This document shows, piece after piece, positions 4,288-40,100 of a stretch of 43,903 nucleotides of DNA. This stretch comes from a virus. Position 1 is the first letter of the stretch; the number at the start of each line of letters is the position of its first letter. The DNA is taken from positions 1 through 43,903 of the IMG/VR virus record IMGVR_UViG_3300013094_000101, one strand, 5' to 3'. The translations under genes and the position numbers were made by a program. Under the pieces are notes generated by a model. The model was given only the letters and a program-made list of their open reading frames with translations, did not search any database and was not told where the DNA came from.

Positions 4288-4292
4288 TAACA

Positions 4293-4305
4293 TTGGATAT
4301 ATACT
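4293..4305 (+). promoter_or_regulatory. Putative phage promoter (TTGGATATATACT)
   Basis: The motif lies 16 bases upstream of the ATG at 4322 and is followed by the A-rich leader CAAATAAAATAAA. It matches the TTGATATATAG boxes at 8332 and 27581. It would start a transcription unit from the S1-domain gene through the short, closely spaced genes that follow. Confidence 0.45.
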
Positions 4306-4321
4306 CTACAAATAAAATAAA

Positions 4322-11975: not shown

Positions 11976-14900
11976 ATGCTACTCAATAACAGATTTAGAA
12001 TTTTTAATAAGAACGGAGAAAACATCAATCCTATTGATCGTTTCAATCTCTATGTTACAATCATCGATCCAGAAAATACTGGAGTAAATGGATATGTACG
12101 TGCTTATGTTGATTATACAGGAAAGCTTGTCCATGTAGAAATAGTCGAAAGTGGATTCGGATATAGTAGTGAAACCTACTTACGATTTGATACAATGATA
12201 TACCCAAACACATTTATCGAAACGGATTCATCTCTTTTGTCAAAAGGTGAAAATGGAGAATTGTTGTCTTACGCTATTCCGGACATCTATGACAGGTTTC
12301 CTGCTCCATCTTCTTATTCATTTACAAACTATTATTTGCCAAACGTCTCGACTGGATTAATTGAATCAGAAAACTTTTTCATTGTTGAAAAAGTCATTGA
12401 TGAAAATGGGAATGAAGCATATACATATCCTAGAGTAGAGAGCTATGGACCATTTAATTTTTCAAGTTATGTATCAAATGGCATAAGTGCTACGTTGACA
12501 GTGCTTTCGGTAGATTTCAATGGATATGTAAATTCTGACTATCCTTTTATGATCGCGGGAGCTCCTAACTTAGAAAGCATAGTAGTTGGAATGACTGTCA
12601 TCGGAAATAATGTTCCATCTGGAACAACAATTACAGGATTTACAAATCATCCAGATGGAACAATTGACATATTTCTGTCAAATTCTCTTACATCTTTTGG
12701 TAATTTATCTTTTAGCGCTTATATTGAACACAATTTACAAGCTGGTTCTGAAATATCTATTCCTACTGGAAATTTAGCAGGGTCTTATATAGTAACACAA
12801 ATCTCGGATTTATCAATTTCTTTTGATAGCAATTTGATTGATAGCGGAGGATCTGGAATATATTATGTAATCCCGCAATTTCAAGCAATTTTAACATCAA
12901 ATAGTGATCCAGAATTTTTCTTTTACACAGTTCAATATAATGTAGACTATCCTACCATAATTAAGTCTCAAGTATTAAATTTTCAATTCACTAATCCTTC
13001 TCTATTAGATTCTCCTGATACTTTTTCTAGTGGAAATGGTGAATTTACTCGTGTTTTGCATTCTTCTTTAGAAAGTAAAGCTTTTCAATTAAACGTAGGT
13101 TTACAAGCTGATTATGAAGGTGTATATGACGCTGTTATTCAAATTTCTGATGTGTCATTTTCCACTCCAAGCACCATATTTGTTGCTTTCATTGAAGGAG
13201 AAGTTGAAGGAGAGGATGAAAGATTAGGTCTTCTTTTAGAAAATTTTGGAAGAGATGTAAATATTGAAGAGGAATTGATATTTAGAGATTCTGACATTAA
13301 CGAAGGAAATGTTGATTATATTCTCTTAAATCAAAAGAGAAAGGAAATGTTGATTCAAGGCGATCAAATTTGGCCTTATCTTGGATCTTACAAAGGATTA
13401 GTGAATATTGTTAATTGGTTTGGATATTATGATATTAGAATCAAAGAATACTTTTTGAATGTCAACATCAATGATGTGTATTATAATACATACCGTCATG
13501 TGCAGATACCTTTTCAGTTGGCTGAAAAAGGAATACACCCTGAATCAATCAATCTCGTGCCTAGTCAATATTATCGAAAGACCGGATTGTTTGGATTATT
13601 TTATGACATAGTCAAAGATAGCGGAACTTTTGATGAGTATGGTATTCCGGTAACAGAAGATGCGTTTGCTTATACAAATGATGAAGTACTTATAAAATTA
13701 TTTGCACTAAAAACATTTCTTAAAAATAAATTTCTTCCTCTTAATACAAGAATAGTAGACATTGCAGGAGAAGGAGTTTATTATGAAAGATATGCAATAA
13801 ATTCATGGTCAGACCGTAATGATCGTTTTTTAATTGATGCTGGTAAAAGAATAGATTTCTATGTACCTGATTCTGTTCAAATAATTGATTCCCGTCTTTA
13901 TAATAGTTTAGGAGGAGTTCTTTCTCCTGAATTATCTGATGCATTAAATAAAAATACTTCTACATATAACTTTAGCACAGTCACAATAATAGATGGCGGA
14001 TCTTTTTCAGGAATAATTCCAAAAGTAACTTTTCCAGGAAACGCAATTCAACAAGCTTTTGGCACATGTCGTGTAAATGCTCTATTAGATCAAGAAATTT
14101 CATTTGGCGGCGGATATGGATCTGGATATGCGATCAATGATATTATAACTCTTGAAGGTGGTGTGTATGAAATACCTATAAGAGTAGTTGTCACCGGTAT
14201 TAATACTGATGGAAGCGTTATTAGCATTACAATTAATCATCCTGAATTTACAGGAAAAAATTACACATCATTACCCATAACTTTTTCCCAATATTCTGTA
14301 ATGAGACCAGTTGGATCTCAGTACGAAGTTCCGTTAGGAGCTTCTGGTTTTTCTTTAACTTCTTCTTTACTTTATTACACATTAAGTGGCATTACTTTAT
14401 CAAACCTAGGAATTGGATATAGCACAATACCAAGTGCTCAATTTATTGCTATTGATAATATAATCACAAATCCGATAGTCAACCTGAATTATGTATCATC
14501 GCCTGATACTCCTGTAGGTTACTATACAAATAGTGTAAATGTTGAAAGATACCCAGATTCTCCTGAAATCATGATAGCTGCTCCTTTGAATATGAGCACA
14601 GATTTTGTATTGACTTGGGATGAAGTGCCGTACTCTTGGAACACATTCACTGGAAGCAATGACGCGAATCTAAAAGCTTGGACAAACAATCTTCCTGCTG
14701 GAAACGGAGAATTGATAGCTATTGAAATAATCAGTCAAGGTGAAAGCTATACATCAGCTCCTTCTTTAACTATTCAAGGAGGTGGAGGATATGGAGCAAC
14801 TGCTATAGCACAGACTCAAGCAGGGATGATTAACATAATTGAATACACAATAGCCGGTGTTTCAACTTCCAGCACAGGAGCAAACAATGATGTATTGAGT

Positions 14901-17900
14901 GTCTATCCTGCTCTTGTGAATATACTCACAGGTTCAGGAAATGTTCCTATAGTTACACCAAATCACATCGTCAAAGGCGACACAATAACAAAAATTCCCG
15001 ATGGAACTATAATTTCTAATGTTAACGTTTCATCAAATGAAATTTTCTTAAGTACATATGATGGAAATCTTACATCTACAAATTTACAAGTAGGTGATAA
15101 AATTTACATACATCAAGGTGTAAGTGTAACTTCTCCAGGAGCAGGATTTATTTCCAATCCTCAAATTGCTGTTAATGGAGGACACACTCAAACAAGTTAT
15201 ACATGGGATCATATTGCTCGTGGAGAATTCCACGAATTAGAATGGAAAATTCAATTAACTTCTCCAGAAGATCCTAAAAAATCTTTCTTTTATGCTTCTG
15301 GAATACAAAGTATTGATAGCCTTTTCAATAACACAGTTTATTTGCCATACACCGGAAAATATACAGTACAATTAGATTTAATAGATACAAATAACAATAT
15401 ATCAAATAAAATTAAATATGATTATGTGAATGTTTATATACCAGAAGCAGATTTTTCTTTTGTTTCAAAAAGTGTAGATGATGGAAAAACTACATGGGAT
15501 GATTTTGATCAAATAGTAGAATCTTCGGATATAACGCAACCCATAATTAAAGCAAACACCCCGTATAATTCTCCTGAGCCGGTAGAATATATTTGGGACA
15601 ATTTTAATTCACGATGGATTAACATAACAAATAATCAAACTGTTTGGAATGATTGCCAGGTCAACTGGGAAACTCTAGAAATCACGGATTTATCAGATAT
15701 TAATTATCCTAATTTTCCAGATGTTAACAAAATAGAAGTTTTACAAGTTTCTTCACAAGATGTTTATGAAGGTTATGTACTTAGTTATACAGATAACACA
15801 TCATTTCCTTCAACTTTGAATCCTACATTGACTTTAGCTGGACAATTTATCTATCCTAAATTGAATCCTTCATACGATCCAACAGACTGGTTATATTTAA
15901 GAAGAGATGGAAATATCTATCAGGTTCCTATCATTAGCACAAACTATTCATCAATTGGAGAAACAATAATAGAACTAGGATCTTTGCCTCCATCATCATT
16001 TAGAAATAACCCAACTTCTTGGGAAGTTTTGAGAGAAATTGGTGGAACCGTTGTGGTGGCAGGAAACCAAATTTATGATATTAAAACAAATCCTGCAGGA
16101 TTCATATCCGGAGATTATCTAATACTAGAAAAAAATGGAAATACTCCCATTCTAAAAAGACAAATAATATCTCAAACCAATTTAGAAGGAATTACTATAA
16201 AGAACGGCGCAATTTTTTCTGATTTAAAAAAACCTGGTTCAATAGGAAAGGTTTATAAAATTAGAGACTATCATGAAACAAATGGAAATTTATCCTGGAG
16301 CTTAGATGAATCTTCAATTAGTACAATATCAATCCCTTCAAATGGCAATGGTTCGGACAATGGTGGAACTTATGATAATTTAGTTCAAAGTTCTACTTCA
16401 GGAAATGGATCAGGAGCGTTATTCACAGTTTATTTGGATGGAAACAATTTTAGCGTTTCAATCTTAAAAACTGGTATTGGTTATAATGTTGGAGATACTA
16501 TAACAATAAATGGAAGCGTTTTTGGTGGAGATGATGGAACTAATGATTTAGTAATGTCTGTAACCACGACACAATCTTCATCTTCTTGGGATTTCATGAA
16601 TAACTCGGATGAATCTTCTTTGTCTCAAGGAAAGATATTCTTAAATGATTTAAGAATATCTTGTGATCCTTTAAATGAAATTCAGCCTGGATTTACTAGA
16701 CTTAAACTATATGCATATGATGGATCGCAATTAGTTTATTCTCAGACATTCAGAACAAAACATATTTCATTCAACACAAGTAATGTAGGATTTGTTTACA
16801 ACTTTTGGCAAGGAAACACGTATGTGATTGATGTAATAGGAGTTGATGGAGGATCGTTAGATGATCTAAGAAACTTTTTAGTAGACTTTGTAAGTTACAA
16901 CACAACGGCACCAATAGTTTATTTGGAGTATGAGTATGATATTTTTACAACTCGAGAAAGATATTTTGAGGATGTAAGTTCAGATGAATATTTATACCTA
17001 GATTATGATAATTACCCTCCAACTAACGATTTTATCGATAGCATAAATTTTGGTGATTCATATAATCAAACAAATTCAAATTGGTTTTATGATCATGGTT
17101 TTTTAGGTAATTCATACTCATTGAATATCATCAACACGGGTATTTGGAAAGGAGGAATAGGAACTTTGTTGACTCTTGATGATAATAATTTTGAACTTTT
17201 TAGAACAGATTCAAATTTTCTTGCTTCACAACAAGAATTTGATGAAGATTATGCAAAAAGACATATAGGAACTAGAACTTTAAATTGGGAAAATTATAAT
17301 GAAGTTATATGGAATGATTTTTCTGGAAATTCTTGGGATACTTTAGATTACACAGAGGAATTAGGATGTGAATTTGTAATAAAGACAATAGCAGAAAATG
17401 GAACTATTAAATTTAATGAAGATGAAGTTTTTACATTCACATCGGTGAATGATTCTTTCAGTGATGCAAGAAATTTAGCTGCTGCTGTTCAGGATTTAAA
17501 CAATTCAAACAATTCAGGAATCAGTAGATTTTCATATTCTCCGACATCACTGTACCCAGCAATACAATCAACATCTTACACATTGCCATGCGGAATAAAT
17601 GGTTATCATATAAACAAGATACAAAAAGGACCTGATGGAAATATATGGGCAATTCTTGAGATAGGAGACACATCATGCGGTTGTGGTATATACTATTATG
17701 ATGGAATTGCTTGGGCAGAATTAATACTCACAAACTCATCATCAGATCATACATGGGTAGATTTTGGTTGGACTTCTACAAATCAATTAGTGGCCATAAC
17801 AAGACATTCTGTGTACACTTCTGTAGCAAATAACTATGCTTCATTACAACTTAAATTAACACCTGGACCAAATTTAAGTTGTATGCACCTTGATGTTGCT

Positions 17901-19727
17901 GATCACTTATGGTTAGGTTCAAATGCAGGTTTATCTCTTTGGGTTTTTGATACATCATCAGGAGAATTTCTAACAGACACTGGAATATCAGGGTTGCCTG
18001 ATAGCAATGTATGGGCTATCGCGGAGGATTCTGCAAATGGATTAATATGGGTCACAACAGATACTTCTATCAGTAATATCACTTGGGACAGCGATCCTGA
18101 TAATGTATCTTTTAACCAAGCGTATGGATCAGTTCCTGGATCTTCTGGAGGAACTTTATCTCTATATCCATCAACATTGGATCCAGTACTTACAACTGGC
18201 GCTGGAGTTTACATATATTCAATATCTTCATCAGATCCAGGGAACTCTTATTATACAAGACTCTCTAATAATCAAGGGTCTTCTTCTCCTATTGCTGGAT
18301 CTTTGTTCATAACTTCGGATAATGAAATATTTTTTGTGAATTTTTTCTTAGAAAAAATTCTTCTTGAACCTGTGTTTAATGGAGACCTCTCTTTATATGA
18401 TTACACTGTTGTACAAGATTCATTATACCAGAACTCTCTTGGATTCAGTAGTACTCGGTTTACATCTGTATTTTATGATGAATCATCGCAGACTACATGG
18501 ATTGGTGATCATGTAACAAAAATCTGGTCTTTTCAATATTCATCCACCGAGGAAGTTCCTTATTTTGGAAAAATAGACTTAGATACTTTTAACTATCAAA
18601 ATTCAATGTTCATAAGTGGTTATGAACTCTCGGAATTAGGAGATTCTTTTTATGGAAGTTTCGTAGATGTAGATACTTACATAACATCTATAATTTGGAA
18701 CGGATCAATGTATCAAATAGGTCTTTCAAAAAATATTCCTAAAAAGGCTTTATTCAATGCAAACTCAATCAATCCAAATATAATAAAAAATGTTATCGGG
18801 TTGACTGAAAAAGATTTAAGAGTCGGAGACTTGATTTCCGGAGATAATATCACGGGTGTTGCGACAGTTATGGAAATTATAAAGTCTGATGGAATGATTA
18901 AAGAAATTATCATAGACATACCTTTTGATTATGAATCTACTCTTAGTAATTTTTATGTAGAATGGTACACTTTTGATAATGCAAAATTGTCAATTCCTTG
19001 GATTTGGAATGAAATACTTATGAATGATTCAAAGATTTATGCATCAGCAAAAAATCCAAGTCTAGATAATTTAGGCTATCTTACTGGAAGCAACGGGGTG
19101 GAATTTTTGTTTCCACAGGATGAAAATACAAATTTAGGTGACATTACATCTACAATTTCTCATACGTTTCCGATGAATAATTTTTATAAATGGTTTGGAT
19201 ATAAAATTGGAAATGTTGGCTCATTTGAGTATGGAATCCAACAATTTTTACAACAATATCGCTATGCTCAAATATATTACAATCTTGGAACTTCTCCTTT
19301 AGGAACTCCTGGATGGTATCCAGCAGACAATTTACCATTAGTATATTCTTACATAAATAGTGATGTTTTTGATAACATGGATGATGCAAAGGCATCATCA
19401 AATAGATTACCTTTTGAAAGATCAATAGGAGGATCTTATACATGGGAAGAGACTCATATTGGTATTAATCAAGATAAATTACCGGTCGGTAGTTCTGTGC
19501 TCTTATCTTCCGATGTAAGCTCTATTGCAGGAAAAACTGCATTCCTTTGGAAGATAATCGAAAATGGTACTGTACTGGTAGAAACCACAGATCCTCAACT
19601 ACTTTGGACTTTTGGCTACACCGGAGAATTCGACGTAGAGCTTACGATATTTGACACAAATGGAAATAATAAGACAATGAGAAAAAATTCTTTCTTGATT
19701 GTATATGCATCTGAGATGAATTCGTAA
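11976..19727 (+). CDS. Giant baseplate wedge/tail protein (2,583 aa) with beta-propeller and PKD-like domains
   Basis: By position after gp25- and gp6-like genes it corresponds to the place of T4 gp7, but it is more than twice as long. Residues about 400-550 (RKEMLIQGDQIWPYLGSYKG, then NIVNWFGYYDIRIKEYF) look like a wedge core. About six copies of a GxGY-type beta motif are scattered along it (VESGFGYSS, GSGYAINDIITLEGG, GESYTSAPSLTIQGG, GAGFISNPQIAVNGG, GIGYNVGDTITINGS). PKD-like strands occur near 1080-1155 (PYTGKYTVQLDLIDTNNN) and at the end (YTGEFDVELTIFDTNGN). Residues about 1870-2195 form propeller blades of the type PDGNIWAI, ADHLWLGS, NGLIWVTT and QTTWIGD. The extra domains probably decorate the baseplate periphery and may contact the host surface. 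AT content rises in the inserted parts. Confidence 0.7.
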   Translation: MLLNNRFRIFNKNGENINPIDRFNLYVTIIDPENTGVNGYVRAYVDYTGKLVHVEIVESGFGYSSETYLRFDTMIYPNTFIETDSSLLSKGENGELLSYAIPDIYDRFPAPSSYSFTNYYLPNVSTGLIESENFFIVEKVIDENGNEAYTYPRVESYGPFNFSSYVSNGISATLTVLSVDFNGYVNSDYPFMIAGAPNLESIVVGMTVIGNNVPSGTTITGFTNHPDGTIDIFLSNSLTSFGNLSFSAYIEHNLQAGSEISIPTGNLAGSYIVTQISDLSISFDSNLIDSGGSGIYYVIPQFQAILTSNSDPEFFFYTVQYNVDYPTIIKSQVLNFQFTNPSLLDSPDTFSSGNGEFTRVLHSSLESKAFQLNVGLQADYEGVYDAVIQISDVSFSTPSTIFVAFIEGEVEGEDERLGLLLENFGRDVNIEEELIFRDSDINEGNVDYILLNQKRKEMLIQGDQIWPYLGSYKGLVNIVNWFGYYDIRIKEYFLNVNINDVYYNTYRHVQIPFQLAEKGIHPESINLVPSQYYRKTGLFGLFYDIVKDSGTFDEYGIPVTEDAFAYTNDEVLIKLFALKTFLKNKFLPLNTRIVDIAGEGVYYERYAINSWSDRNDRFLIDAGKRIDFYVPDSVQIIDSRLYNSLGGVLSPELSDALNKNTSTYNFSTVTIIDGGSFSGIIPKVTFPGNAIQQAFGTCRVNALLDQEISFGGGYGSGYAINDIITLEGGVYEIPIRVVVTGINTDGSVISITINHPEFTGKNYTSLPITFSQYSVMRPVGSQYEVPLGASGFSLTSSLLYYTLSGITLSNLGIGYSTIPSAQFIAIDNIITNPIVNLNYVSSPDTPVGYYTNSVNVERYPDSPEIMIAAPLNMSTDFVLTWDEVPYSWNTFTGSNDANLKAWTNNLPAGNGELIAIEIISQGESYTSAPSLTIQGGGGYGATAIAQTQAGMINIIEYTIAGVSTSSTGANNDVLSVYPALVNILTGSGNVPIVTPNHIVKGDTITKIPDGTIISNVNVSSNEIFLSTYDGNLTSTNLQVGDKIYIHQGVSVTSPGAGFISNPQIAVNGGHTQTSYTWDHIARGEFHELEWKIQLTSPEDPKKSFFYASGIQSIDSLFNNTVYLPYTGKYTVQLDLIDTNNNISNKIKYDYVNVYIPEADFSFVSKSVDDGKTTWDDFDQIVESSDITQPIIKANTPYNSPEPVEYIWDNFNSRWINITNNQTVWNDCQVNWETLEITDLSDINYPNFPDVNKIEVLQVSSQDVYEGYVLSYTDNTSFPSTLNPTLTLAGQFIYPKLNPSYDPTDWLYLRRDGNIYQVPIISTNYSSIGETIIELGSLPPSSFRNNPTSWEVLREIGGTVVVAGNQIYDIKTNPAGFISGDYLILEKNGNTPILKRQIISQTNLEGITIKNGAIFSDLKKPGSIGKVYKIRDYHETNGNLSWSLDESSISTISIPSNGNGSDNGGTYDNLVQSSTSGNGSGALFTVYLDGNNFSVSILKTGIGYNVGDTITINGSVFGGDDGTNDLVMSVTTTQSSSSWDFMNNSDESSLSQGKIFLNDLRISCDPLNEIQPGFTRLKLYAYDGSQLVYSQTFRTKHISFNTSNVGFVYNFWQGNTYVIDVIGVDGGSLDDLRNFLVDFVSYNTTAPIVYLEYEYDIFTTRERYFEDVSSDEYLYLDYDNYPPTNDFIDSINFGDSYNQTNSNWFYDHGFLGNSYSLNIINTGIWKGGIGTLLTLDDNNFELFRTDSNFLASQQEFDEDYAKRHIGTRTLNWENYNEVIWNDFSGNSWDTLDYTEELGCEFVIKTIAENGTIKFNEDEVFTFTSVNDSFSDARNLAAAVQDLNNSNNSGISRFSYSPTSLYPAIQSTSYTLPCGINGYHINKIQKGPDGNIWAILEIGDTSCGCGIYYYDGIAWAELILTNSSSDHTWVDFGWTSTNQLVAITRHSVYTSVANNYASLQLKLTPGPNLSCMHLDVADHLWLGSNAGLSLWVFDTSSGEFLTDTGISGLPDSNVWAIAEDSANGLIWVTTDTSISNITWDSDPDNVSFNQAYGSVPGSSGGTLSLYPSTLDPVLTTGAGVYIYSISSSDPGNSYYTRLSNNQGSSSPIAGSLFITSDNEIFFVNFFLEKILLEPVFNGDLSLYDYTVVQDSLYQNSLGFSSTRFTSVFYDESSQTTWIGDHVTKIWSFQYSSTEEVPYFGKIDLDTFNYQNSMFISGYELSELGDSFYGSFVDVDTYITSIIWNGSMYQIGLSKNIPKKALFNANSINPNIIKNVIGLTEKDLRVGDLISGDNITGVATVMEIIKSDGMIKEIIIDIPFDYESTLSNFYVEWYTFDNAKLSIPWIWNEILMNDSKIYASAKNPSLDNLGYLTGSNGVEFLFPQDENTNLGDITSTISHTFPMNNFYKWFGYKIGNVGSFEYGIQQFLQQYRYAQIYYNLGTSPLGTPGWYPADNLPLVYSYINSDVFDNMDDAKASSNRLPFERSIGGSYTWEETHIGINQDKLPVGSSVLLSSDVSSIAGKTAFLWKIIENGTVLVETTDPQLLWTFGYTGEFDVELTIFDTNGNNKTMRKNSFLIVYASEMNS

Positions 19728-20582: not shown

Positions 20583-20822
20583 ATGGCTAAGACTACATCG
20601 AAAACCCGAAGAACAAAGAATGAAGAAGATTTCGAAATGGAACCGCTGCAACAGCAACCCATTTTGTCAAGCATTAAAGTTAACTTAAAATGCAAAACAG
20701 AGAAACAAAAGACACTGTGCAAATTAATCGAGTCAAAAGATGTAACGATCGCTGCCGGTCCAGCAGGATGTTTAACAAAAAATGAAAAAATAAAAGTATA
20801 TATGCTAAGAAATAAACCTTAG
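20583..20822 (+). CDS. phoH: PhoH-like ATPase N-terminal extein fused to 17-residue split-intein N fragment
   Basis: Residues 1-62 are the N-terminal part of a PhoH-like P-loop ATPase, ending in DVTIAAGPAG, the first half of the Walker A loop. From residue 63 (codon 20769-20771) the sequence becomes CLTKNEKIKVYMLRNKP and stops at TAG 20820. Cys followed by LTK is a classic intein block A start, with Cys as the splicing nucleophile. The rest of Walker A (TGKT) is 1.6 kb downstream after the intein C fragment. I read this as a fractured gene with a naturally split intein of the atypical, very short N-fragment kind. The N fragment is net basic. The ATG at 20583 has an A-rich leader; an ATG 26 codons upstream lies within the preceding gene and is unlikely. 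Confidence 0.85.
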   Translation: MAKTTSKTRRTKNEEDFEMEPLQQQPILSSIKVNLKCKTEKQKTLCKLIESKDVTIAAGPAGCLTKNEKIKVYMLRNKP

Positions 20823-20826
20823 TTTT

Positions 20827-22023
20827 ATGTATAAATCTGATAATTTAAAACAATACACAAAAGATTTACGCAATCTAATAAAGAATGATGACATAAATTT
20901 TATGTCTTTAAAAAAATATTTTACAAAATATGCAGAAGAATTGCATTTAAAAGTAACAGATGATCTTGTAAATAAAAGTTTATTTAATTTTGAAAAAAAT
21001 AAATTAATAACACAAATTAATTACTTAAATATTTTACATTTTGGTTTTTCAACAAAGAAGAAATCATTGGATTTCTGGATATCTAGAGGATGGAGACCAG
21101 ATGAAGTGGAAGAAAAAATAAAAAGCTTAAGTTCTTTCAGTTATTCTTATTTATTAAATAAAGGATATTCTAAAGAAGAAGCTAAAGAAATAATTAGTAA
21201 CCGTGTCAAATCAAATCATGCCACAAAAAACCCAAATTTTGATACCAGAGTATATGGAAGATCAGTTGATTATTATAAAAAAAGAGTAAACAAAAAAACT
21301 GGGGTCTTTTATACCGAGGATGAAATTCATGACATAATAGTTAGATTGCAATCGAATGCTTCAAAGATAAGATGGAAAAAACATAAAGAAAATCCTACAT
21401 ATAAATCATTAAACACTAGAATAGAATACTACATAGAAAAAGGACTAAGTATAAAAGAAGCTGAAATTGCTTTAAAAGAAAGGCAGGCTACAAATAAGGT
21501 TTCATATTATATTTCTAAATTTGGTAAAGAAAAAGGACTAATTAAGTACAATGAAAGATTAAAGAATTATAGTAATAAAATAAAAGAAGATTGGAAAAAA
21601 AATCCTTATAAACGTTGGAATTCAGGAAAAAGATATTCAAATTCTTCTATATTATTTTTTGATTCTATATTAAATGAATTAAAAGATCTTAAAAATTTTG
21701 TAGTTTATTATAAAAATAATGAATTTTTTATAGTAAATGATTCTTCTATATTTTTTTATGACTTTTGTATTAAAGAATTAAAATTAATTATAGAATATAA
21801 TGGATTAGCTTTTCATCCAAAAACTGAAAATCAAAATTGGAAATCTATATGGGGAAATTTTAGCGCAGCAGAAATTTATAAAAAAGATATGTACAAAAAA
21901 GATTTAGCTGAATCTAAAGGTTTTACTTTATTAACAATATTTGAAGATGAAGAAACAGAAAAAAAACAAACCATAATTAATGAAATATCTAAAAGAATTA
22001 GGGAGAGACACGATAATAGCTGA
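20827..22023 (+). CDS. Vsr-like (EDxHD-type) homing endonuclease in the fractured phoH gene
   Basis: The C-terminal third has a Vsr-like nuclease signature: LKLIIEYNGLAFHP, then YKKDMYKKDLAESKGFTLLT and IFEDEE, that is Glu, Asn-Gly, His, followed by Asp/Lys and a final acidic pair. This is the family found with split inteins in phage genes. The middle holds three units of the RG.s.eEA type (FWISRGWRPDEVEEKI, YLLNKGYSKEEAKEII, YYIEKGLSIKEAEIAL) that probably recognise DNA. It starts 4 bases after the stop of the phoH N-terminal gene and overlaps the start of the C-terminal gene by 44 bases. It is strongly AT-rich. The likely role is to cut intein-free phoH at the Walker A codons. Confidence 0.85.
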   Translation: MYKSDNLKQYTKDLRNLIKNDDINFMSLKKYFTKYAEELHLKVTDDLVNKSLFNFEKNKLITQINYLNILHFGFSTKKKSLDFWISRGWRPDEVEEKIKSLSSFSYSYLLNKGYSKEEAKEIISNRVKSNHATKNPNFDTRVYGRSVDYYKKRVNKKTGVFYTEDEIHDIIVRLQSNASKIRWKKHKENPTYKSLNTRIEYYIEKGLSIKEAEIALKERQATNKVSYYISKFGKEKGLIKYNERLKNYSNKIKEDWKKNPYKRWNSGKRYSNSSILFFDSILNELKDLKNFVVYYKNNEFFIVNDSSIFFYDFCIKELKLIIEYNGLAFHPKTENQNWKSIWGNFSAAEIYKKDMYKKDLAESKGFTLLTIFEDEETEKKQTIINEISKRIRERHDNS

Positions 22024-23029
22024 TCTTCTTAACTATTATGAAGAAGATCAGCTATCAAATTATTCTGATGAGTATTTAGAAGAGTTTTTTTCTAACCACA
22101 TTAATGCTAATGCAAAAGAATTAAAAATTTCTGAAATTTTTAATGTGCATGAAAAAATTCTAGTTAATTCTTTAGATGGATATGTATTAATTACTGATAA
22201 AGTAATAAAAGAGAACTTGGATTGTTTTACAGTAACATTAAAAAATGGTGCAAAAATTTCTTGTTCATATAATCATTTAGTAGAAACAAAAGATGGGTGG
22301 AAAAAAATAATTGATTTGACAAAAAAAGATTTAATATTAACATCTGACGGATTTATTTATTTTAAAAATAAAAGAAAACTTAAAAACCAAACAGTTTATG
22401 ATTTCCAGGTAAATCATCCTAACCATAGATATTTAACAGCATCTGGAATTTCTAGTCATAATACTGGCAAAACTTATATTGCTTGCGCCGAAGCTTTAAG
22501 ATTGCTAATTGCTCCAACATCTACTTTTAAAAAGATTGTGATCGTCAAATCGGTAACCGTATTGGAAGGAGAAGACATTGGTTACTTGAAAGGCAATATG
22601 AAAGAAAAAATGGAGCCTTTCATGAATTCTTTCATGGACAACTTTTACAAAATCATAGGTAAAGAAAATTCGGTGGCTCTTCTTGCATCCGAAATCATAG
22701 AAATTCTGCCGCTTGCGTACATAAGAGGAAGAAGCATCGACGAGGCAATCATCATTATCGATGAATCACAGAACATGCCAAAACACCACTTAAAGAGCAC
22801 CGTCACTCGAATTGGAGAAAAATCAAAAATGATTTTTCTAGCAGACGAGGATCAAGTCGATTTAAAGAACAAAAAAGACAGTGGTTTGACTTGGTTTTTG
22901 GATGTGACAGCGGATCTTGATGAATTTGGAACTATGAGATTTACTAAAGATGATGTCGTCAGAAACCCGCTGATTTCCAAATTCTTGAAACACATCGAAG
23001 AAAAAGAGTCTACTCAGAATTCAATATAA
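21980..23029 (+). CDS. phoH: Split-intein C fragment fused to PhoH-like ATPase C-terminal extein
   Basis: Residues 1-161 are the intein C fragment. It has an unusual acidic leader (about residues 15-50), then block B (NGAKISCSYNHLVETKDGW), block F (VYDFQVNHPNHRYLTASGI) and block G (SSHN) ending in Asn at 22460-22462. From Thr+1 the extein reads TGKTYIACAEALRLL, completing Walker A, with Walker B as IIIIDESQNMPKHH. The extein is 188 residues, so spliced PhoH would be 250 residues, the usual size of this ATPase domain. Phage PhoH proteins are common but their job is poorly known. ATG at 21980 is the only start possible: an in-frame stop lies just upstream and no later ATG precedes block B. Without trans-splicing neither half can bind ATP. 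Confidence 0.9.
   Translation: MKYLKELGRDTIIADLLNYYEEDQLSNYSDEYLEEFFSNHINANAKELKISEIFNVHEKILVNSLDGYVLITDKVIKENLDCFTVTLKNGAKISCSYNHLVETKDGWKKIIDLTKKDLILTSDGFIYFKNKRKLKNQTVYDFQVNHPNHRYLTASGISSHNTGKTYIACAEALRLLIAPTSTFKKIVIVKSVTVLEGEDIGYLKGNMKEKMEPFMNSFMDNFYKIIGKENSVALLASEIIEILPLAYIRGRSIDEAIIIIDESQNMPKHHLKSTVTRIGEKSKMIFLADEDQVDLKNKKDSGLTWFLDVTADLDEFGTMRFTKDDVVRNPLISKFLKHIEEKESTQNSI
22016..22055 (+). terminator. 15-bp perfect hairpin at the end of the endonuclease gene, inside intein C fragment
   Basis: Arms ATAGCTGATCTTCTT (22016-22030) and AAGAAGATCAGCTAT (22041-22055) are perfectly complementary around a 10-base loop. The left arm contains the endonuclease stop codon (22021-22023), and the whole hairpin lies 36 bases into the intein C-fragment gene. 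No U-run follows, so it may protect the endonuclease mRNA 3' end or slow ribosomes rather than terminate transcription. Confidence 0.5.
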
Positions 23030-23454
23030 TTGATGTAGCTTTTTTGTTTGAACCAATCTGGTCCATAGCTAACGGTGATTTGTTCATCAGCCTCGATGTC
23101 ACTGATAGCAACCACATGTGCCAACTTATTTTTTGTGTCGACGACAAATTGTGAATTGTTTTTATTGCTGTGATTGTATAAGCTCAGGTAGCCTAGCATA
23201 ATCGCAGCAGTAGAGACACCTCTTTCATCTGTTCCCCACATAACAGCGTAACGATCAATGCCAATCTCGGAATCTTTGATCCCCTCTCCCATTGATACAA
23301 ATATCGCTAGGTCGATCAGTCTTTTTGGGTACAAAAAGACGGGTGATGTTTCTATGCAATCACCCGCTTGTATTCTTTCTTTTGTAAAAACTCCCCATCC
23401 ATCGATTTCGGGAATCCTCTTCAGAAATACTTTTTGACTAATTTGTGCTTCCAT
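23014..23454 (-). CDS. SET-domain protein (putative protein lysine methyltransferase)
   Basis: The 146-residue protein is a compact SET domain. The N-terminal motif is GWGVFTKERIQAGDCIE (SAM-binding GxG type). The core motif is LGYLSLYNHSNKNNSQF, with the diagnostic NHS. The C-terminal motif is ISDIEADEQITVSYGPDW, with the catalytic-type Tyr. SET enzymes transfer methyl groups from S-adenosylmethionine to lysines; the target in a phage-infected cell is unknown. The gene is on the minus strand, overlaps the upstream zinc-ribbon gene by 17 bases and overlaps the 3' end of phoH by 16 bases tail to tail. Confidence 0.85.
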   Translation of the reverse strand: MEAQISQKVFLKRIPEIDGWGVFTKERIQAGDCIETSPVFLYPKRLIDLAIFVSMGEGIKDSEIGIDRYAVMWGTDERGVSTAAIMLGYLSLYNHSNKNNSQFVVDTKNKLAHVVAISDIEADEQITVSYGPDWFKQKSYINYIEF

Positions 23455-24610: not shown

Positions 24611-25489
24611 TTATAATATAATGAACTCAAAAGACAAGCCTTTATTTAAGCATGCTTGTCTTTTGAGTTCATTTTCTATTTTATTTACTTTATAAGTCCA
24701 AGAAGATTTTACTTCATATACTTTATTTTCTGAAATGATAAAAAAATCAGGATAATATTTTCTAATCTTATTATCTTGTTCATATTCAATATATCCTATT
24801 TTTTTATTAATTTCTTTAACACTTGTTAAGATGTCATCTTCTTTATATTTTAACAATAAAGAATCTAATACTTTCCCTTCATATCCTTGTAAACGAGCAA
24901 TTTTACCAGATGGCAAAATATAATCATAAAATAGTTTTGAATTATTTTTTTGAGATTCCATAACATCAGCAGTTTGCATTGGGTGTCCACCATATTTTTC
25001 TTTGAATGTTCTTTTAATTTTTTTATGTGTTTCAGGATTAGAAAATGCGCTTACAAATGTTCCATTATTAACTCTATATGTTGTGTAATTATTAACACCA
25101 TATTTTAACATAATAGAAGTATTTAGATTTTCTTTTGTTTTGTCAGTTTGCATTGGGTGCCCACCATAGTTTTCTTGAAATGTTTTATTAGCAGCATTTT
25201 GTTTTTTATTTTTCCAAATTTCGCATTCTTTATTGCAACATAAATTATCGTAACCTAAAGTAAAACCGCGATATTTTTTATTTCTTCCACATAAGCATTT
25301 TGGAATTTTTATCATGTTATGATAATAAAGAAAAATATCCTCTTTAAGAATCCCTGATAATTGTGGAATTTCTTTAATTAATTGATCTTTATTATATTTA
25401 CTGAGGTTTGACAATGCAATTGCTAAAAAATGTCCTCCTTTTAAAATTTCTTCTTTTAAATGTTTTTTAAGATTCTTCCCATTCCACAT
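24611..25489 (-). CDS. Zinc-finger homing endonuclease with C-terminal PD-(D/E)XK nuclease
   Basis: Residues about 64-92 form a zinc-binding module (CLCGRNKKYRGF, then LCCNKECEIWK). Then come repeats of the type FQENYGGHPMQT, LKYGVNNYTT and FKEKYGGHPMQT, as in the gene at 8360. The C-terminus has RKYYPDFFIISENKVYEVKS, a PD-(D/E)XK nuclease motif (Asp, then Glu-Val-Lys). The gene is AT-rich, on the minus strand, and free-standing between the exonuclease and Fpg genes. Its last codons form the long hairpin at 24620-24673. Likely role: DNA cleavage at an allele lacking it; target unknown. Confidence 0.75.
   Translation of the reverse strand: MWNGKNLKKHLKEEILKGGHFLAIALSNLSKYNKDQLIKEIPQLSGILKEDIFLYYHNMIKIPKCLCGRNKKYRGFTLGYDNLCCNKECEIWKNKKQNAANKTFQENYGGHPMQTDKTKENLNTSIMLKYGVNNYTTYRVNNGTFVSAFSNPETHKKIKRTFKEKYGGHPMQTADVMESQKNNSKLFYDYILPSGKIARLQGYEGKVLDSLLLKYKEDDILTSVKEINKKIGYIEYEQDNKIRKYYPDFFIISENKVYEVKSSWTYKVNKIENELKRQACLNKGLSFEFIIL
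24620..24673. terminator. 20-bp perfect inverted repeat, probable bidirectional terminator
   Basis: The left arm 24620-24639 (AATGAACTCAAAAGACAAGC) and right arm 24654-24673 pair perfectly over 20 bp with a 14-base loop. On the plus strand it is followed by TTTCTATTTTATTT, so it could terminate the exonuclease transcript. It lies inside the last 18 codons of the converging endonuclease gene, which therefore encode the hairpin. Confidence 0.7.
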
Positions 25490-33600: not shown

Positions 33601-34189
33601 TGATAAAAATGTTCCGTCTAAACAATTAGAGTATTCTAAGAATTGGAGCGGAGTCACAATAGCGCCAGGAGCTACTTCATATTCACCAAACATAAGTGAT
33701 TTACCAGATAAGTTTGGATTTATTGACAATGATAGATACTTAGTAGGATCAAATACTTGTGGAGCTTATTTATTCATTGGGCCAGTTTCTTATAATCAGT
33801 TGTTGGTAAATGGAGTAGATGCAAGAGCTACGGCCACAATTAATCCAGGAGATGCCAACGCAATAGTCATACCAATTATTTTTCAATATAGAATGACTGA
33901 TTACTATGGTCCTTCAATTAATAGCGCTTCAACATCTGCTGGAGAAGGTATTCTCGGAGGCTATAATCCATCATTATCAGTCCCTCCTAAGAATCTTACA
34001 TATGTAAGACAAATAGGAATTGATCTTTATCAACAAGACAAGCAGACATTTTCTTTTGATGTTCAAGTTTCAGCAACATATCAAAAAGATTCATTAGTTC
34101 AACTTTATCAAACAGGTCTGCCATCAACAGTTAAAGATGTCAAACAAGTTACATATGATAAGGCAACCATCAAACGTATATTTTCATAA
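30638..34189 (+). CDS. Large virion structural protein, baseplate/tail (1,183 aa)
   Basis: The N-terminal part is helical (SFASVLADFIRLQNNSIEQL). Residues about 410-490 form a strong coiled coil (DIEAIRKKQADKVRLEKEIA, then ELQVSIDAKKEQL). The middle and C-terminal parts are beta-rich with fibronectin-like stretches (GESVEFYVVAVSEAGWPDNP). The stop overlaps the next start (TAATG), showing translational coupling with the 2,546-residue gene. Likely a tail or baseplate component; no family assigned. Confidence 0.6.
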   Translation: MAQTSNSFASVLADFIRLQNNSIEQLQQVSNAVSSNADTVTVTQTNSDGTTSTFTLPSFGWIKSSIDRIDTTLSTMLGFDGSDAYIRLPDGTFKKIYQASNITDPTPVGKVTPPSKFIAQNNWFFDSLLSPSLKVSIDVSKYIQQIESSIYVKKMILNLDTDAKVQYFTNNLDGNNNIDYVTFLVELQKRGITYFVDEGVQPLPLSVVRYTGDFVVVNTKDIVTNNTDGSTSTKRWYLLNTLKYNDNLSLSKQTLTLKVGDNLLKGESIYQIQQIDTSTNLVRVNRSSGYDPFVIGESVAFYSEVFSPKIVNVGIGFGEYDVVFFKTINNQENLIASQYSPGVAFYTNDLTIDLTTGPKNLQDFYNQNVQDFGKVLLAGTKDNKIPAVMGVLPNTPVLNSDNFQVVSINDHKLNQADIEAIRKKQADKVRLEKEIAELQVSIDAKKEQLYTTKFNSDTERRAVKNQLDSLIRQKDSDSSLYSSIVKDLAVTAQNQPSALDAPIYRIRGFFAIPDTVKDDNGNDQAIVQFYTYYQYVSPDGSSSNVKQFDYQDSSGAIKRGTFSNLNVSKSEIRKKVYDPVQGKYVWDSEDIQNADVININQIDIPITNGESVEFYVVAVSEAGWPDNPLLSLPSNTISITFPANLVTADEATLALTEASQDIVRVNLEDDLSAKGLDTHLSSSFNANEQYYAHGSDVISSNFYNSSGNVISLYDLLNTMKTQITDLQNRLNNVIGDISVSIVDEDKNTKTPIKNGDIVTLFAGYYKDSTGLLPAANRRGAIIAKTYKIYLENNEASPLQMIARIPGGVAEDLPISSSMNPTINDPDYNNYRKYDITPIVNPSINTNDTNNSNKISTAFYQSGQLKGQFLYSRYTDIGLVNTLYQGVTATDRAILPSSSTGYGTQSWLWNWVDTNGTVAAGAGPTGGGYQNEFAIHVDHPLINPAAGTTGISLTGLQTPTIYIDPSSGYPLSPEAVSSFRHSFGFNNPGDKNVPSKQLEYSKNWSGVTIAPGATSYSPNISDLPDKFGFIDNDRYLVGSNTCGAYLFIGPVSYNQLLVNGVDARATATINPGDANAIVIPIIFQYRMTDYYGPSINSASTSAGEGILGGYNPSLSVPPKNLTYVRQIGIDLYQQDKQTFSFDVQVSATYQKDSLVQLYQTGLPSTVKDVKQVTYDKATIKRIFS

Positions 34190-37100
34190 TGACTGGACCT
34201 AATTTTTATAATATTGATTTTGACCGAGAAATAGTTTTACAAGGTCAATCCACTACCTTTATCACCATATCTAGAAATGATTCTTACGGTGTAACCGGAG
34301 GACATGAAGATGTGTATGTGATGCTTTTTCCAAACACAAAAACATTTCGCTCTCACTATTCTGGAGTTGCTGATTCTTCGAGTTCTTATTCTGATGGAGT
34401 ATCACAATATAATATTAAACTTTCAAATCCAGGAGGAGAAACAGTCAATCCTAATCAACTATCAATCAATAATCCTGGATTTGGTCCTTCGGGTTCTTAT
34501 ATCAAGAATTCGAATGATTTTGTGTTTGCAACAGACATTTCCATGATTGATAATCTTTTTGTAGATGATAAATATCCTCCTAGTTACATAGGACAGAACT
34601 TAGGATCTACAGGTAATATCATATCTCCAGCATTTACAGAAGTTACTGTGTCTTCAGCTGCAGGATCATCTTTTTCTGTCACAGGAACTTCAGGTTCTAC
34701 AGCAACAGTACACATTGGAACTTGGGAATGGGAAAATCCAAATGATCAATGGAAGATCAATGGAAGATCTCTAAAAGATCTTGAATATATTGCATACACA
34801 ACACCATACCCTCCGTCGAAAGAAAATGTAGCAAACTTTGTCAACATTTTCGATGGAACGACCCAAAGCTTTTTGACTGATAAGCTTCAAGGAACTGGAT
34901 ATGTTGGAAGACAGATTGGAGGATGGGGAGTCATTAAGTATGATCCTAATGTTCCTAATGCTTCCATAACAATTCGTATTGATTACGATGGCTCTGCTGA
35001 TTCCCACATGAAATTAAATTTTGTAGTCTGGAAAGTAGATCAGAATGCTGCAGTTAAATCTTTTTCGTATGCTGCACCTTTATTGAATCAACAAGGTTTT
35101 ACAGGTTTGAATAATTCTGTATCTTATATCAATTCTCCATACGGTGCAAAGTCTGGATCAATTGATCTAGGAATATCTCAATGGGTTGACTATCAAGAAA
35201 CTCATTTTTTTGGATATACACAAGAACAAAATAAAACATCAAGAGAGACTTGGCAAAATCAATATAAATCAGAAATTAAGATATATGAAGATCTTTCTTC
35301 TTACGGATTGATAAAAACAAATCCAAAGATATCTGGGAATGTAAAAATAACACAAGATTCAAATGGTGACATTTGGTTAAATTCTATAGATGCAAATAAT
35401 GAGCTTGCAGATTCTACATATAAAAAATTTGCAATAAGTTCAAAATCTACTTATGCGAAAGATTTATACACCTTTTTTAAGAATGGAAAAACTCCATCTT
35501 CAACCATATTTGATCTTTATCAAGCAGATTCTACATATGAAAATACAAAAAGAAATTTGTACGAACAATACGACAATTTCTATAATTATGGAGTAGAAAA
35601 CCAAAAAAATCGCTATTATGACGAGGCTTTTTCTTTTTTTGCTCCAATTTGGCTAAGAAATATAGTTCCAGATTTTTTTATTATTTTTAGGTTAGATCAC
35701 CCTGTATCAGTTGAAAGTTATAATGATCTCGCAACTAACCCAGAAAAATTTGCTGAATTTTTTACAGAAAGTAGGATCATTAAAACTTTTGATATAAGAA
35801 GCACCTCAAAACTTGGATCTTATATTAGAAACATTGTTAATGATCCTAGATTTAAAAATAGTCCACTAGATGTAAGTTTTGACCAAGATGTAGCGACAAC
35901 TTGGTATGGAATTTCGTATGCAAATGGAACTATGTCAGGAAAGGGTGAATTCTTATATGATTACTGGTCACAAGATCGACCTATTATAGAACTTGAAGAA
36001 TATATCACCGGTGGATTCGAAAGAAACGGAATCATAAGTACAAATTTATTAAATTTAGAATTTTTATTCAATGATGAAACTGCTACTCCTTATACAATCA
36101 ATCGTTACTTTGGACTATATGTCACGGAAAACCAGCTTGCTAACTTTCAGATAGCTTCGGATGTAATTTCAAAAATCACATCACAAACGCCATATCCTCA
36201 AACTGGTGTAGATGCAGAACCATATAGCACAAAATCATTTACTCAATCAAATTCCAATGGGATTCAATTACCTGTTAATTATTATCATAACACTTCATCC
36301 GGTGTTAACAATACAAACATACCTGCATATCAAGGAGACGTTATTGGAAAATTTCCGTTGCCATCAATGGTGGATGATCCGCTAAGAATATTTTATGTAA
36401 AAGATCGTAATGATCTTTTTAAAAGAATAAAAAAAATGTCTGAAGTTGATTATGGGTATCCAGGAACAGCTGATTATAAAAGAGTAACTCAACTAAATTT
36501 GTTTGAGTACACAGATGACATTAGTAATTATGGTGGAGTCAATCAAATGACATCTCAAGCAACAGCTACACTTTTAGATGCTGGAAATGCTCAACTACGT
36601 TTACATTTATCCAGTGTAGGTACAGATACTGTTTTTGCTGATCAAGAAGTAATAGAAATTGCGGTTGATCAATTCAATCATGAAACACGCATTCATACAT
36701 ATTATCTTAGATTAACATATAATTCTCTATCTACTGTAAAATTTGAAGTTTTTAAAGATCAATATGTAGAAAAAATAGAGGCAGGCCAAGGATTTTTTAT
36801 GCCTGGAGTAGGAGAAACTAGAAATCTCTCTGTCACTGATGCAACAAATTTTTCTGATGGCCAATACATATACATCACAAATGCTGGGCAATTTATAGTT
36901 AATCAAGTTGATTATGATGCATCAACTATTACAATAACCAATGCTTTTACGAATAAAAATGTCGTGGCAGGAACTGTGGTTAATGATTATGAATTAATCG
37001 TAATAGGATTGCCTTCATATGAAATTGAATATGTATATTCTCCTACAAATGCAGATGTAACAATTGATCCTTTGATTACTATTACTATCACAGACACTCC

Positions 37101-40100
37101 TTCATCTTATGATTCAAGTGTATCTTATAAAATAGATGTCAAAGATACAGCAATCAATATTGTTAATCTTGTCAATACATCAAATACAATTGATGCAAGA
37201 CTGTCTCCAGCTTATCCACAGTATCGTTGGAGAATGATTGCGAATAGCTCTGGATTGCGTCCAGGAGAGGCTTGGGATTATCCTGTTGAAGACATTGATG
37301 GTCATGATTGGGTGACGACATTCAGCAACACTGGATCTCCATCACAAGTAGCCCAAGCATTGGCTCTAGCCATAAATTCTTTTGATAATCGTCCGTGTGA
37401 TGCAGTTTCTTATAATGAAATAGTGTATTTGAAATCAAAATTAAATGGAGAACTTGGAAACAGCATTGTCATAACTAGAAATATGATAGATGGAATCAGT
37501 AATATTTACAACTTAGGATTCTACGATCATAAAAATGTGAATGTTTCAGAAACTGCTAATGTTCTTAAGTTGGGTGGAAGCTCTTTTGTTACTAATCCAA
37601 TTTCTACAAATTTCTTGGATCAAGTAGGAATTTGCGGAAACACATACACATATCTTAAATTTAAAAAATCAAGCCCTAATGAATTTGCTGATGGATATTA
37701 TGCGCAAATTAGAATAGGTGTTGATCCAACATCGATACAAACTGCAAGAAATACCGGAACAGAAATTTTTAATACAGTAGTCCCGCCTGATAATATCTTT
37801 GTTAATGAAAATCTTCCATACTCTGTAGATATTAGCAATGTTGGATTTGACACATTCGTGGAATATGTAATCGAACAAAGTGTTGGTCCTCTTGCTGTTA
37901 AACAATATTTTGTAGGGGGATCAAATAGAAACCGTAATCGTGCTAAAATAGCTTTTGGCGATTCAGAAAGATATTATAGTGACCGTCGAATTAGATTGAC
38001 TGGAGATATTACATTAGGTTCTGACATCATCAAAAATATAAATGTTGATAATATTTATATAGGTGCGACTGTTGTAGGATCCGGAATTCCTGAAAATACA
38101 ATAGTCAATGCAATAAGTTTGATAAATGGATTTGTCTACATTAGCAATCTTTCTACAGCTACATTGACTAATAATTCTTTAGAAATTGGAGATCTAAACA
38201 TCATTAATACAAATGTAATAAATAATCAATGGTTTCAAACACAAAAAGGTAGTTACTCTTCGATATATGGGTGGGATGTTCAAGGAAACTATGTGTATTC
38301 ATTACCATATCTAGAAGAACCTGTGTATGATTCAAAAAATCAACTACAAGATTTTGTAGATCTTGGAGGGTATAGCGTAATTCAAGTAACAGACACAACA
38401 CAAGAATTTTATCAATCAGCAGATAAAAGAATAGTTGCATATGATTTATATAGGCCCGCATTGGGAGTTTTTTCAATTTTTCCAATAAAAGAATTTGATG
38501 TTGATTTTATTTTTTCTGATTATTCGTACACTCCAATCATAGAATCTTTTAGATATTTCTTTAATGAAACAGTCACCATCGGACAAACTCTAGTGCTTCC
38601 AGTTAAAGAAAATTGGGTTGTCACATGTTCAGATGCTGGAAGATATGATATTTTATTTGAGACGTTTAACCCATTAACAAATTCTTGGGATTCTCTAACA
38701 ACCATTGAGGCTGGGTATGACGGAACTTCAATTATGCTTAATACATACTATCCATTTTATGTATATGATGAATTTGAATCTCCTATTGATGATGAAGATT
38801 ATAACAATGCAAATTATTATCATGAAACTCCTATCGGAAAAAAATATTCAATAGAAGGATCTGGACTAAGAAACTACATGTCTAAGATTATCACTTATCG
38901 TGATGAATTTGGAAACTTGACTGAGCAAGAGCCTGTATCTTTTAGGATAAGTTTTTCAATACCTATAAACACATCGGACGATGATGTATCGGAAAATGCT
39001 ACATTTAATATAAAGAAAAATGATTATTCACAAGACAAAGATCTAGAAAAATTTCAAGGATTTCTTGGTTTGGAGGATATACAAACACAAGAAGACGTCG
39101 AAGCATTTAGAAGTCTTATAGAAAAGGGAGAATATATTGATGCTTTTTTATCACAGTTGTTAAAATCTGAATATGATAGGCTAAGAGAAAATTATAACAA
39201 GAGTTATGCAACTAAATCTCGAGTAGTTCCTTATATCAGTAAATGGGTTCAATTAGGCACAGATGCAAGAGACAATTATTATCGTTTGAATACTTCGAAG
39301 GCATTTGGAATTAGCAATCTATCTCCGGATAGCAGTGTAAATTTTGCTGAAGCTTCTTTGTTGACTAATGAATTTCCATACTTAGACACTGTTCCAAAAG
39401 ATTACCCCGAAGAATCTTTAGAAGGCTCTAGATCGTATATGTTTGCCAAATTAAATGATATTGCTAATGCAAATACAATGAAAACTTGGTATGATTTGCT
39501 CACATCTGACACCTCTGATGATTGGTTTACTAAGTATTTTTCTGTGGGTTATCCTACAGAAATTAGTGGAGCTTCAAATCTTGTAACAAAATCTCGCGAA
39601 GAAAGATTCACGTTCTTTGTTTATAATAATGGATTAGAAAGATCACAGACATTATTTAGAGGAGCAAAAATACAAGTTATTGATCTCAACGATCAAATTA
39701 ATCCACCGGTTGAAGTAAGTGCTTCTACAAAATATGATGGGTATAAATTTGCTTCAATTGCGCAAGTATTACCACACACTCCATTTACAAAAGAAAAACC
39801 TGTGAGCATCGAAATATGCAAAAACGATGTTTTCAAAACAATTTTGATGATTATCACGATTAAGATTCAAGATTATAGAATTCAATCAGGATTAAATGAT
39901 TATCTATTCTTTTATGCTGTTAATGATCAGCTAAAAAATTATGGACAACAGCAAGTGATGACAAACATTAGCGGTCCGCTTGCTGTTGACAATACATTAA
40001 CGCCAAATAAATTTGCGCCGTATAGTGATTTCAGCATAAGCTCATATACTGATTTAGCAAAAATGAGACCAAGACAAGGATTTCTTGGAGCAGGATATTT

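What the first reader, a model, noticed from the sequence alone, without database searches (positions are those of the whole stretch)
20583..23029. Fractured phoH gene with a naturally split intein whose N fragment is only 17 residues
The Walker A motif is broken as GPAG / TGKT. The first half is followed by CLTKNEKIKVYMLRNKP and a stop. The second half is preceded by intein blocks B, F and G ending SSHN. An EDxHD-type endonuclease gene lies between. Split inteins with free-standing endonucleases in fractured phage genes are known, and a few atypically split inteins have N fragments of about 15-25 residues. One in the P-loop of a PhoH ATPase may be new. The N fragment is basic and the C fragment has a long acidic leader, which suggests electrostatic association, reversed relative to the usual acidic-N/basic-C pattern. 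ATPase activity would depend strictly on trans-splicing.
Basis: partly seen in the sequence, partly recalled or inferred. Interest (0 to 1): 0.88.

Follow-up and report, generated by a model that had tools for sequence, protein, structure and literature searches.

The report
Split intein breaking phage phoH gene
A phage gene for the ATP-using protein PhoH is cut in two, inside its ATP-binding loop, by a mobile self-splicing protein element and its DNA-cutting enzyme, so a working PhoH probably forms only when the two separately made halves splice together; the element belongs to a known family of split inteins but sits in a gene where this family had not been described in the literature I could search.

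Summary
phoH is fractured exactly inside its Walker A loop (GPAG|TGKT). The order is a 62-aa N half plus a 17-aa intein-N (CLTKNEKIKVYMLRNKP, then a stop), a 398-aa homing-endonuclease gene, and a 161-aa intein-C plus the 188-aa C half.

The 1694-bp insert is absent from syntenic phages with an intact phoH up to 74% identical. The intein-C model (mean pLDDT 93.7) matches the solved VidaL intein first. All splicing residues are present. The same intein and endonuclease family splits phoH at the same site in a 462-kb GenBank phage (LR756500) and splits RecA/UvsX at the Walker A site in many other phages.

The 17-aa N fragment is normal for this family: relatives have 15-33, VidaL 16, PolB16 15. 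The basic-N/acidic-leader pattern is common in the relatives. The leader is a helical insert that also occurs in an unsplit relative, so it is not a special docking tail.

What is new is the target gene: PhoH, invaded by a clade whose other members sit in RecA. Trans-splicing was not shown.

Verdict: real, a new member of a known kind, with a moderately interesting evolutionary twist (apparent movement between P-loops of unrelated ATPases).

The parts
20583..20768 (+). N-terminal half of PhoH (N-extein, 62 aa) ending in the first half of Walker A, GPAG
   Evidence: matches PhoH profile positions 2-30; PHROG 170 E 6.8e-6
20769..20822 (+). intein-N, 17 aa CLTKNEKIKVYMLRNKP, then stop TAG
   Evidence: 25.1 bits against a profile of relatives' N fragments, next best in six frames 10.9
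20827..22023 (+). free-standing Vsr-like homing endonuclease, 398 aa
   Evidence: family alignment with invariant Y311, E323, G326, H330, D354; homologous to endonucleases between halves of other split inteins
21980..22153 (+). helical acidic leader of intein-C (about 58 aa, net charge -8), homologous to an internal insert of a contiguous intein
21980..22462 (+). intein-C, 161 aa, with S96xxH99, D141 and terminal H160-N161; start codon lies inside the endonuclease ORF (44-nt overlap)
22463..23029 (+). C-terminal part of PhoH (C-extein, 188 aa) starting with the second half of Walker A, TGKT (Thr+1 nucleophile)
   Evidence: Pfam PhoH E 1.2e-49; 56-74% identical to intact syntenic phoH in L111-L123
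20769..22462 (+). whole insertion (1694 bp) relative to intact phoH
   Evidence: 71 of 72 PhoH relatives uninterrupted at the site; syntenic empty sites L111-L123

Best explanation
A mobile split-intein element of the VidaL type has invaded phoH at the Walker A codon boundary. Expression of the locus gives three proteins: PhoH-N with a 17-aa intein-N tail, the homing endonuclease, and intein-C joined to PhoH-C. The two intein pieces find each other and rebuild the intein fold. A class 1 reaction then follows: Cys1 acyl shift, transfer to Thr+1, and Asn161 cyclisation assisted by His160. This ligates GPAG to TGKT and makes intact, ATP-binding PhoH. The endonuclease cuts intein-free phoH alleles in co-infecting phages, so that the insert is copied into them. 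The clade otherwise lives in the RecA/UvsX P-loop, so this phoH copy most likely derives from a RecA copy. Shown here: anatomy, homology, intact residues, predicted fold of the C part, exact empty sites in syntenic phages, nesting in the RecA clade. Inferred: trans-splicing, endonuclease activity, homing, direction of movement.
For: Exact empty site: 71 of 72 IMG/VR PhoH relatives are uninterrupted; L111-L123 keep the flanking gene order with intact phoH; the joined halves align without a gap at the P-loop with the intact PhoH of LR756501. Same arrangement elsewhere: phoH in LR756500, UvsX in PA5oct with a 17-aa N fragment, gp41 helicase in VmeM-32, and many RecA/UvsX loci. Contiguous relatives carry N and C parts in one chain: SCTP-2 UvsX and L092 RecA; L092 lacks the 1.25-kb endonuclease stretch that its 72-75% identical relative L185 has. 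Structure: intein-C model pLDDT 93.7; VidaL is the top PDB hit by sequence and by fold. Trees: in the 33-row intein tree the window falls in a long-leader set of 9 RecA and 2 PhoH rows (100/99); its endonuclease falls in the RecA-type clade (100/98).
Against: No experiment shows splicing or cutting. The N+C complex was not modelled, because chimeric input is not accepted. The window's intein is the most diverged of its group (end branch 2.2-3.0), which could mean fast evolution or the start of decay. No clear ribosome-binding site was seen before the C half.
Confidence: 0.9

Rival explanations
1. The insertion has killed phoH: the intein pieces are decaying remnants, splicing no longer happens, and the endonuclease gene simply sits in a dead gene.
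For: The window intein has the longest branch of its clade, and PhoH is not known to be essential for phages (own knowledge).
Against: Cys1, S96xxH99, D141, H160-N161 and Thr+1 are all kept; intein-C folds with pLDDT 93.7; both PhoH halves are intact and open over 250 aa; endonuclease catalytic-type residues are kept.
Confidence: 0.06
2. The split is used as a regulator: PhoH activity is delayed or tuned by slow trans-splicing, and the insert is kept for that benefit rather than as a selfish element.
For: The insert sits in the ATP-binding loop, so splicing would be the on switch; conditional splicing is described for mycobacterial DnaB inteins (PMC6195587, PMC7360933).
Against: Sporadic distribution (71 of 72 relatives without it), a linked endonuclease with conserved residues, and nesting among inteins of another gene all fit a selfish element.
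Confidence: 0.05
3. The two halves are joined at RNA level (group I or II intron) or by recoding rather than by protein splicing.
For: Phage endonuclease genes often sit in introns (general knowledge).
Against: No Rfam intron match in the window; the inserted coding sequence has intein sequence on both sides of the endonuclease and an intein fold in its C part.
Confidence: 0.01
4. Assembly or base error.
For: The record is a virus contig of unknown finishing quality.
Against: Halves in different frames with a complete gene between; the same layout in independent assemblies, including a GenBank huge phage.
Confidence: 0.01

Closest known systems
VidaL split intein (PDB 6vgv/6vgw) and its UvsX relatives, for example in Pseudomonas phage PA5oct
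   Same: Top sequence and fold match; split just after the first strands, with a 15-19-aa N fragment (VidaL 16, PA5oct 17); Walker A insertion; endonuclease between the halves in many loci.
   Different: Target is PhoH, not UvsX; Thr+1 not Ser+1; intein-C carries an extra helical leader of about 35-40 aa (leader 58 aa against 21-22 in UvsX members); core charge +6 against -9 to -16.
Long-leader RecA split inteins of large phages (L014, L184, L185, L189, L193, L194, L196; contiguous L092)
   Same: Same clade for intein (100/99) and endonuclease (100/98), same helical leader, in most the same SSHN|TGKT junction.
   Different: Inserted in RecA, not PhoH. No published description was found in the library searched.
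Fractured phoH of uncultured huge phage LR756500 (L002, identical to L013)
   Same: Same gene family, same codon boundary, same endonuclease family, long leader.
   Different: PIN-PhoH (PhoH2-like) host protein; 26-aa N fragment; intein-C only 38% identical.
Aeromonas phage Aes508/Aes123 PolB1 split intein with VSR endonuclease
   Same: Endonuclease gene of the same superfamily lies between the halves and overlaps the C half.
   Different: Canonical split (long N, short C), in DNA polymerase, and cysteine-less.
Mycobacterial PhoH inteins
   Same: Intein in PhoH (PMC6195587, PMC7360933).
   Different: Class 3 inteins in an uninterrupted gene; insertion site not compared here.

Membership tests
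Atypically split class 1 intein (VidaL/AceL type) | Short intein-N (15-37 aa, PMC13014065) on one ORF, long intein-C on another | tested here: met
   17 aa and 161 aa
Atypically split class 1 intein (VidaL/AceL type) | Split just after the first beta strands (S1 site) | tested here: met
   N fragment ends where VidaL's does; contiguous SCTP-2 and L092 show both parts joined at this point
Atypically split class 1 intein (VidaL/AceL type) | Catalytic residues: Cys1, block B [TS]xxH, block F Asp, terminal His-Asn, Cys/Ser/Thr at +1 | tested here: met
   C1, S96xxH99, D141, H160-N161, Thr+1
Atypically split class 1 intein (VidaL/AceL type) | Hint (intein) fold | tested here: met
   intein-C model pLDDT 93.7; top PDB hit VidaL, rmsd 1.7 over 113 columns. 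The N+C complex itself was not modelled
Atypically split class 1 intein (VidaL/AceL type) | Trans-splicing activity | not testable with these tools
   needs an experiment
Fractured gene with EDxHD/Vsr-type homing endonuclease | Endonuclease gene in the same orientation between the two halves | tested here: met
   20827-22023
Fractured gene with EDxHD/Vsr-type homing endonuclease | Homology to known VSR-type split-intein endonucleases, with conserved acidic/His residues | tested here: met
   Aes508 family 26%, E about 1e-4; E323, H330, D354 invariant in ten sequences, the D of FYD (next to Y311) in most
Fractured gene with EDxHD/Vsr-type homing endonuclease | EDxHD signature as defined by Dassa et al. 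2009 | tested here: inconclusive
   defining paper not held; a Vsr profile hit appears only in a relative and below cut-off
Fractured gene with EDxHD/Vsr-type homing endonuclease | Site-specific cleavage of intein-free phoH | not testable with these tools
   needs an assay
PhoH (PF02562) | P-loop ATPase domain restored when halves are joined | tested here: met
   profile 2-30 on the N half and 22-204 on the C half; gapless at the P-loop against intact PhoH
Group I/II intron | Rfam-recognisable ribozyme | tested here: not met
   no match at gathering cut-off in the window

The most novel reading that the evidence does not exclude
A clade of mobile trans-splicing inteins with a helical leader moves between Walker A motifs of unrelated ATPases (RecA/UvsX to PhoH, perhaps more than once). 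This happens because its endonuclease recognises the conserved P-loop coding DNA, so the ATP-binding loop itself is the homing target rather than one gene.
Probability: 0.35. Interest if true: 0.65.

Novelty: new member of a known kind. Interest (0 to 1): 0.45.

Why it matters
It adds PhoH to the genes split by very-short-N inteins and supplies about ten further natural pairs of a long-leader subfamily, useful for protein ligation with synthesised N fragments. The L092/L185 pair (unsplit without endonuclease, split with it) and the phoH/RecA nesting make two questions testable: how an intein becomes split, and whether such elements jump between genes that share only a P-loop.

Tried and rejected
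Single-sequence scans of IMG/VR with intein-C, PhoH-C or the endonuclease gave no confirmed relatives; profile queries were needed. Two profile scans of bacterial and archaeal genomes found none. Intron search: none. A profile of the endonuclease found no convincing solved structure (weak hits to a sulfotransferase and tail proteins, taken as chance). The idea that the acidic leader evolved to bind the basic N fragment was set aside, because the contiguous L092 has the leader too and leader charge in relatives runs from -10 to +1. The idea that the leader is a leftover DNA-binding domain is open: L094's leader hits HTH_26 (E 7e-5), but the window's does not. Two separate invasions of phoH are neither shown nor excluded (AU p 0.21 and 0.31). 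The promoter/terminator scan was no better than shuffles. Alignment A7 misaligned contiguous rows and was replaced by A8.

Full report
What is there. On the + strand, 20583-20768 encodes 62 aa of PhoH ending GPAG. It is followed in frame by CLTKNEKIKVYMLRNKP and a stop (20769-20822). Four bases later a 398-aa ORF starts (20827-22023). A third ORF starts 44 nt before its end in another frame (21980-23029); it reads 161 aa of intein-C ending GISSHN, then TGKTYIACA..., the rest of PhoH. The C half matches PhoH at E 1.2e-49 and the intein splicing domain at E 6e-5. The N half adds the missing first PhoH profile positions. No intron family was found. The window is a 43.9-kb virus record.

Not chance. 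Profile scans of IMG/VR brought in about 100 loci with related inteins. A weight matrix from 11 relatives' N fragments, without the window, gives the 17-mer 25.1 bits; the best of all other 14-mers in six frames is 10.9.

The empty site. A profile of PhoH found 72 relatives in IMG/VR. In 71 the P-loop is uninterrupted; the last begins at a contig end. Thirteen (L111-L123) share the local gene order (HAD gene, often an 84-aa gene, phoH, SET gene, 93-aa gene) and have an intact phoH, up to 74% identical in the C part. The 1694-bp segment 20769-22462 is therefore an insertion at the exact boundary GPAG|TGKT. One of these phages (IMGVR_UViG_3300043425_001539) has intact phoH, 67% identical (L112), but carries an intein of the same clade, with its endonuclease, in RecA (L015).

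The family. The best solved relative is VidaL, by sequence (E 1.6e-5 for the window alone; 4.8e-45 with the family profile) and by fold. VidaL-type loci themselves are among the hits (L087, L089, L090: CLPKEAVVQIRLTKKG or close variants). Known N fragments are 16 aa for VidaL and 15 aa for PolB16; natural atypical ones span 15-37 (PMC13014065, PMC10189870). In the UvsX loci here they are 15-19 aa and in long-leader RecA loci 26-33. The window's 17 is ordinary for the wider family, though the shortest in its own subfamily.

The second phoH case. In LR756500 (462 kb, GenBank, unannotated; its stretch is identical to IMGVR_UViG_3300025030_000039) a PIN-PhoH gene is broken at the same boundary: LTGKAG|CLYPDEKIKIYK... 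stop, a 430-aa endonuclease, then intein-C ...GISSHN|TGKT. No other phoH case appeared in 50,697 phage records at this sensitivity.

The leader. UvsX members have about 21 aa before the first conserved motif of intein-C. The window, LR756500 and the RecA subfamily have 56-77. The model of the window's intein-C shows the extra part as helices (pLDDT 93.7). In L092 the same stretch lies inside one continuous intein, between the N fragment and the rest, and is again modelled as two helices. It is thus a structural insert at the split point. But the window's core is +6, and the leader is not unique to split forms.

How it became split. L185 (split, with endonuclease) and L092 (contiguous, without it) are 72-75% identical in DNA across the gene. 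L185 has about 1.25 kb at 3686-4934 where L092 has about 20 bp. Gain or loss of the endonuclease is the difference between a split and an unsplit allele; the direction is not known.

Where it came from. In the 33-row intein tree the two phoH inteins fall in a set with nine RecA inteins (100/99). The LR756500 copy sits next to RecA copy L189 there (97/67) and also in the endonuclease tree (89/90). A single phoH invasion is not rejected (AU p 0.31 and 0.21). The target DNAs resemble each other: across the 24 bases coding for the Walker A motif, the window's phoH and the RecA gene of L193 share 20 (read). Movement between genes through this similarity is an inference.

Mechanism. Shown: anatomy, intact splicing residues (C1, S96xxH99, D141, H160-N161, Thr+1), fold of the C part, exact target boundary, conserved endonuclease residues (E323, H330, D354 invariant). 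Inferred: trans-splicing to GPAGTGKT, dependence of ATP binding on it, endonuclease cutting of empty phoH alleles, homing.

Verdict. The finding is real and correctly read in its main point. Size of the N fragment and charge pattern are family norms. The new part is the target gene and the long-leader clade. I file it as a new member of a known kind, interest 0.45. The library searched holds no paper joining split inteins with PhoH beyond papers on the mycobacterial ones and one passing co-mention and none joining split inteins with UvsX, but subscription papers, including the defining 2009 'fractured genes' paper and the VidaL paper, could not be read.

Noticed in passing
L014 4505-8950 and L184 3683-7256: The RecA/UvsX-like gene is in three pieces: a Walker A split intein with endonuclease, then a second, canonically split intein after NHTYA, with a further ORF between in L014. 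RecA would need two trans-splicing reactions. L193 and L107 look the same.
   Followed up: partly
L092 5228-6786 versus L185 3343-6116: Natural pair of related RecA genes (72-75% DNA identity): one with a split intein and endonuclease, one with the same intein unsplit and the 1.25-kb endonuclease stretch missing.
   Followed up: yes
window 24611-25489 (-): A second putative homing endonuclease (DUF7487, E 5e-31) lies between the exonuclease and Fpg-like glycosylase genes; in syntenic relatives such as L113 those two genes are adjacent without it.
   Followed up: partly
window 435-1547 (+): Gene matching an HNH endonuclease family (phrog_12434, E 2e-15), a third nuclease-like gene in 44 kb.
   Followed up: no
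window 23014-23454 (-): SET-domain gene overlapping the 3' end of phoH tail to tail by 16 bp; it stays next to phoH in all 13 syntenic relatives.
   Followed up: partly
L094 5545-5775: The intein-C leader of this UvsX split intein matches a Cro/C1-type HTH model (HTH_26, E 7e-5, above Pfam's cut-off), so the leader may descend from a DNA-binding domain.
   Followed up: partly
L186 4661-6599: RecA split intein without any endonuclease: the N half ends 19 nt before the ATG of the C half.
   Followed up: no
L016-L086, many loci: Numerous gp41-like helicase genes carry related Walker A inteins, contiguous in some (L039-L042) and apparently split in others, forming a clade of their own (99/96).
   Followed up: partly
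window 11976-19727 and 34189-41829: Two very large phage genes (2583 and 2546 aa), the first just upstream of the phoH neighbourhood.
   Followed up: no
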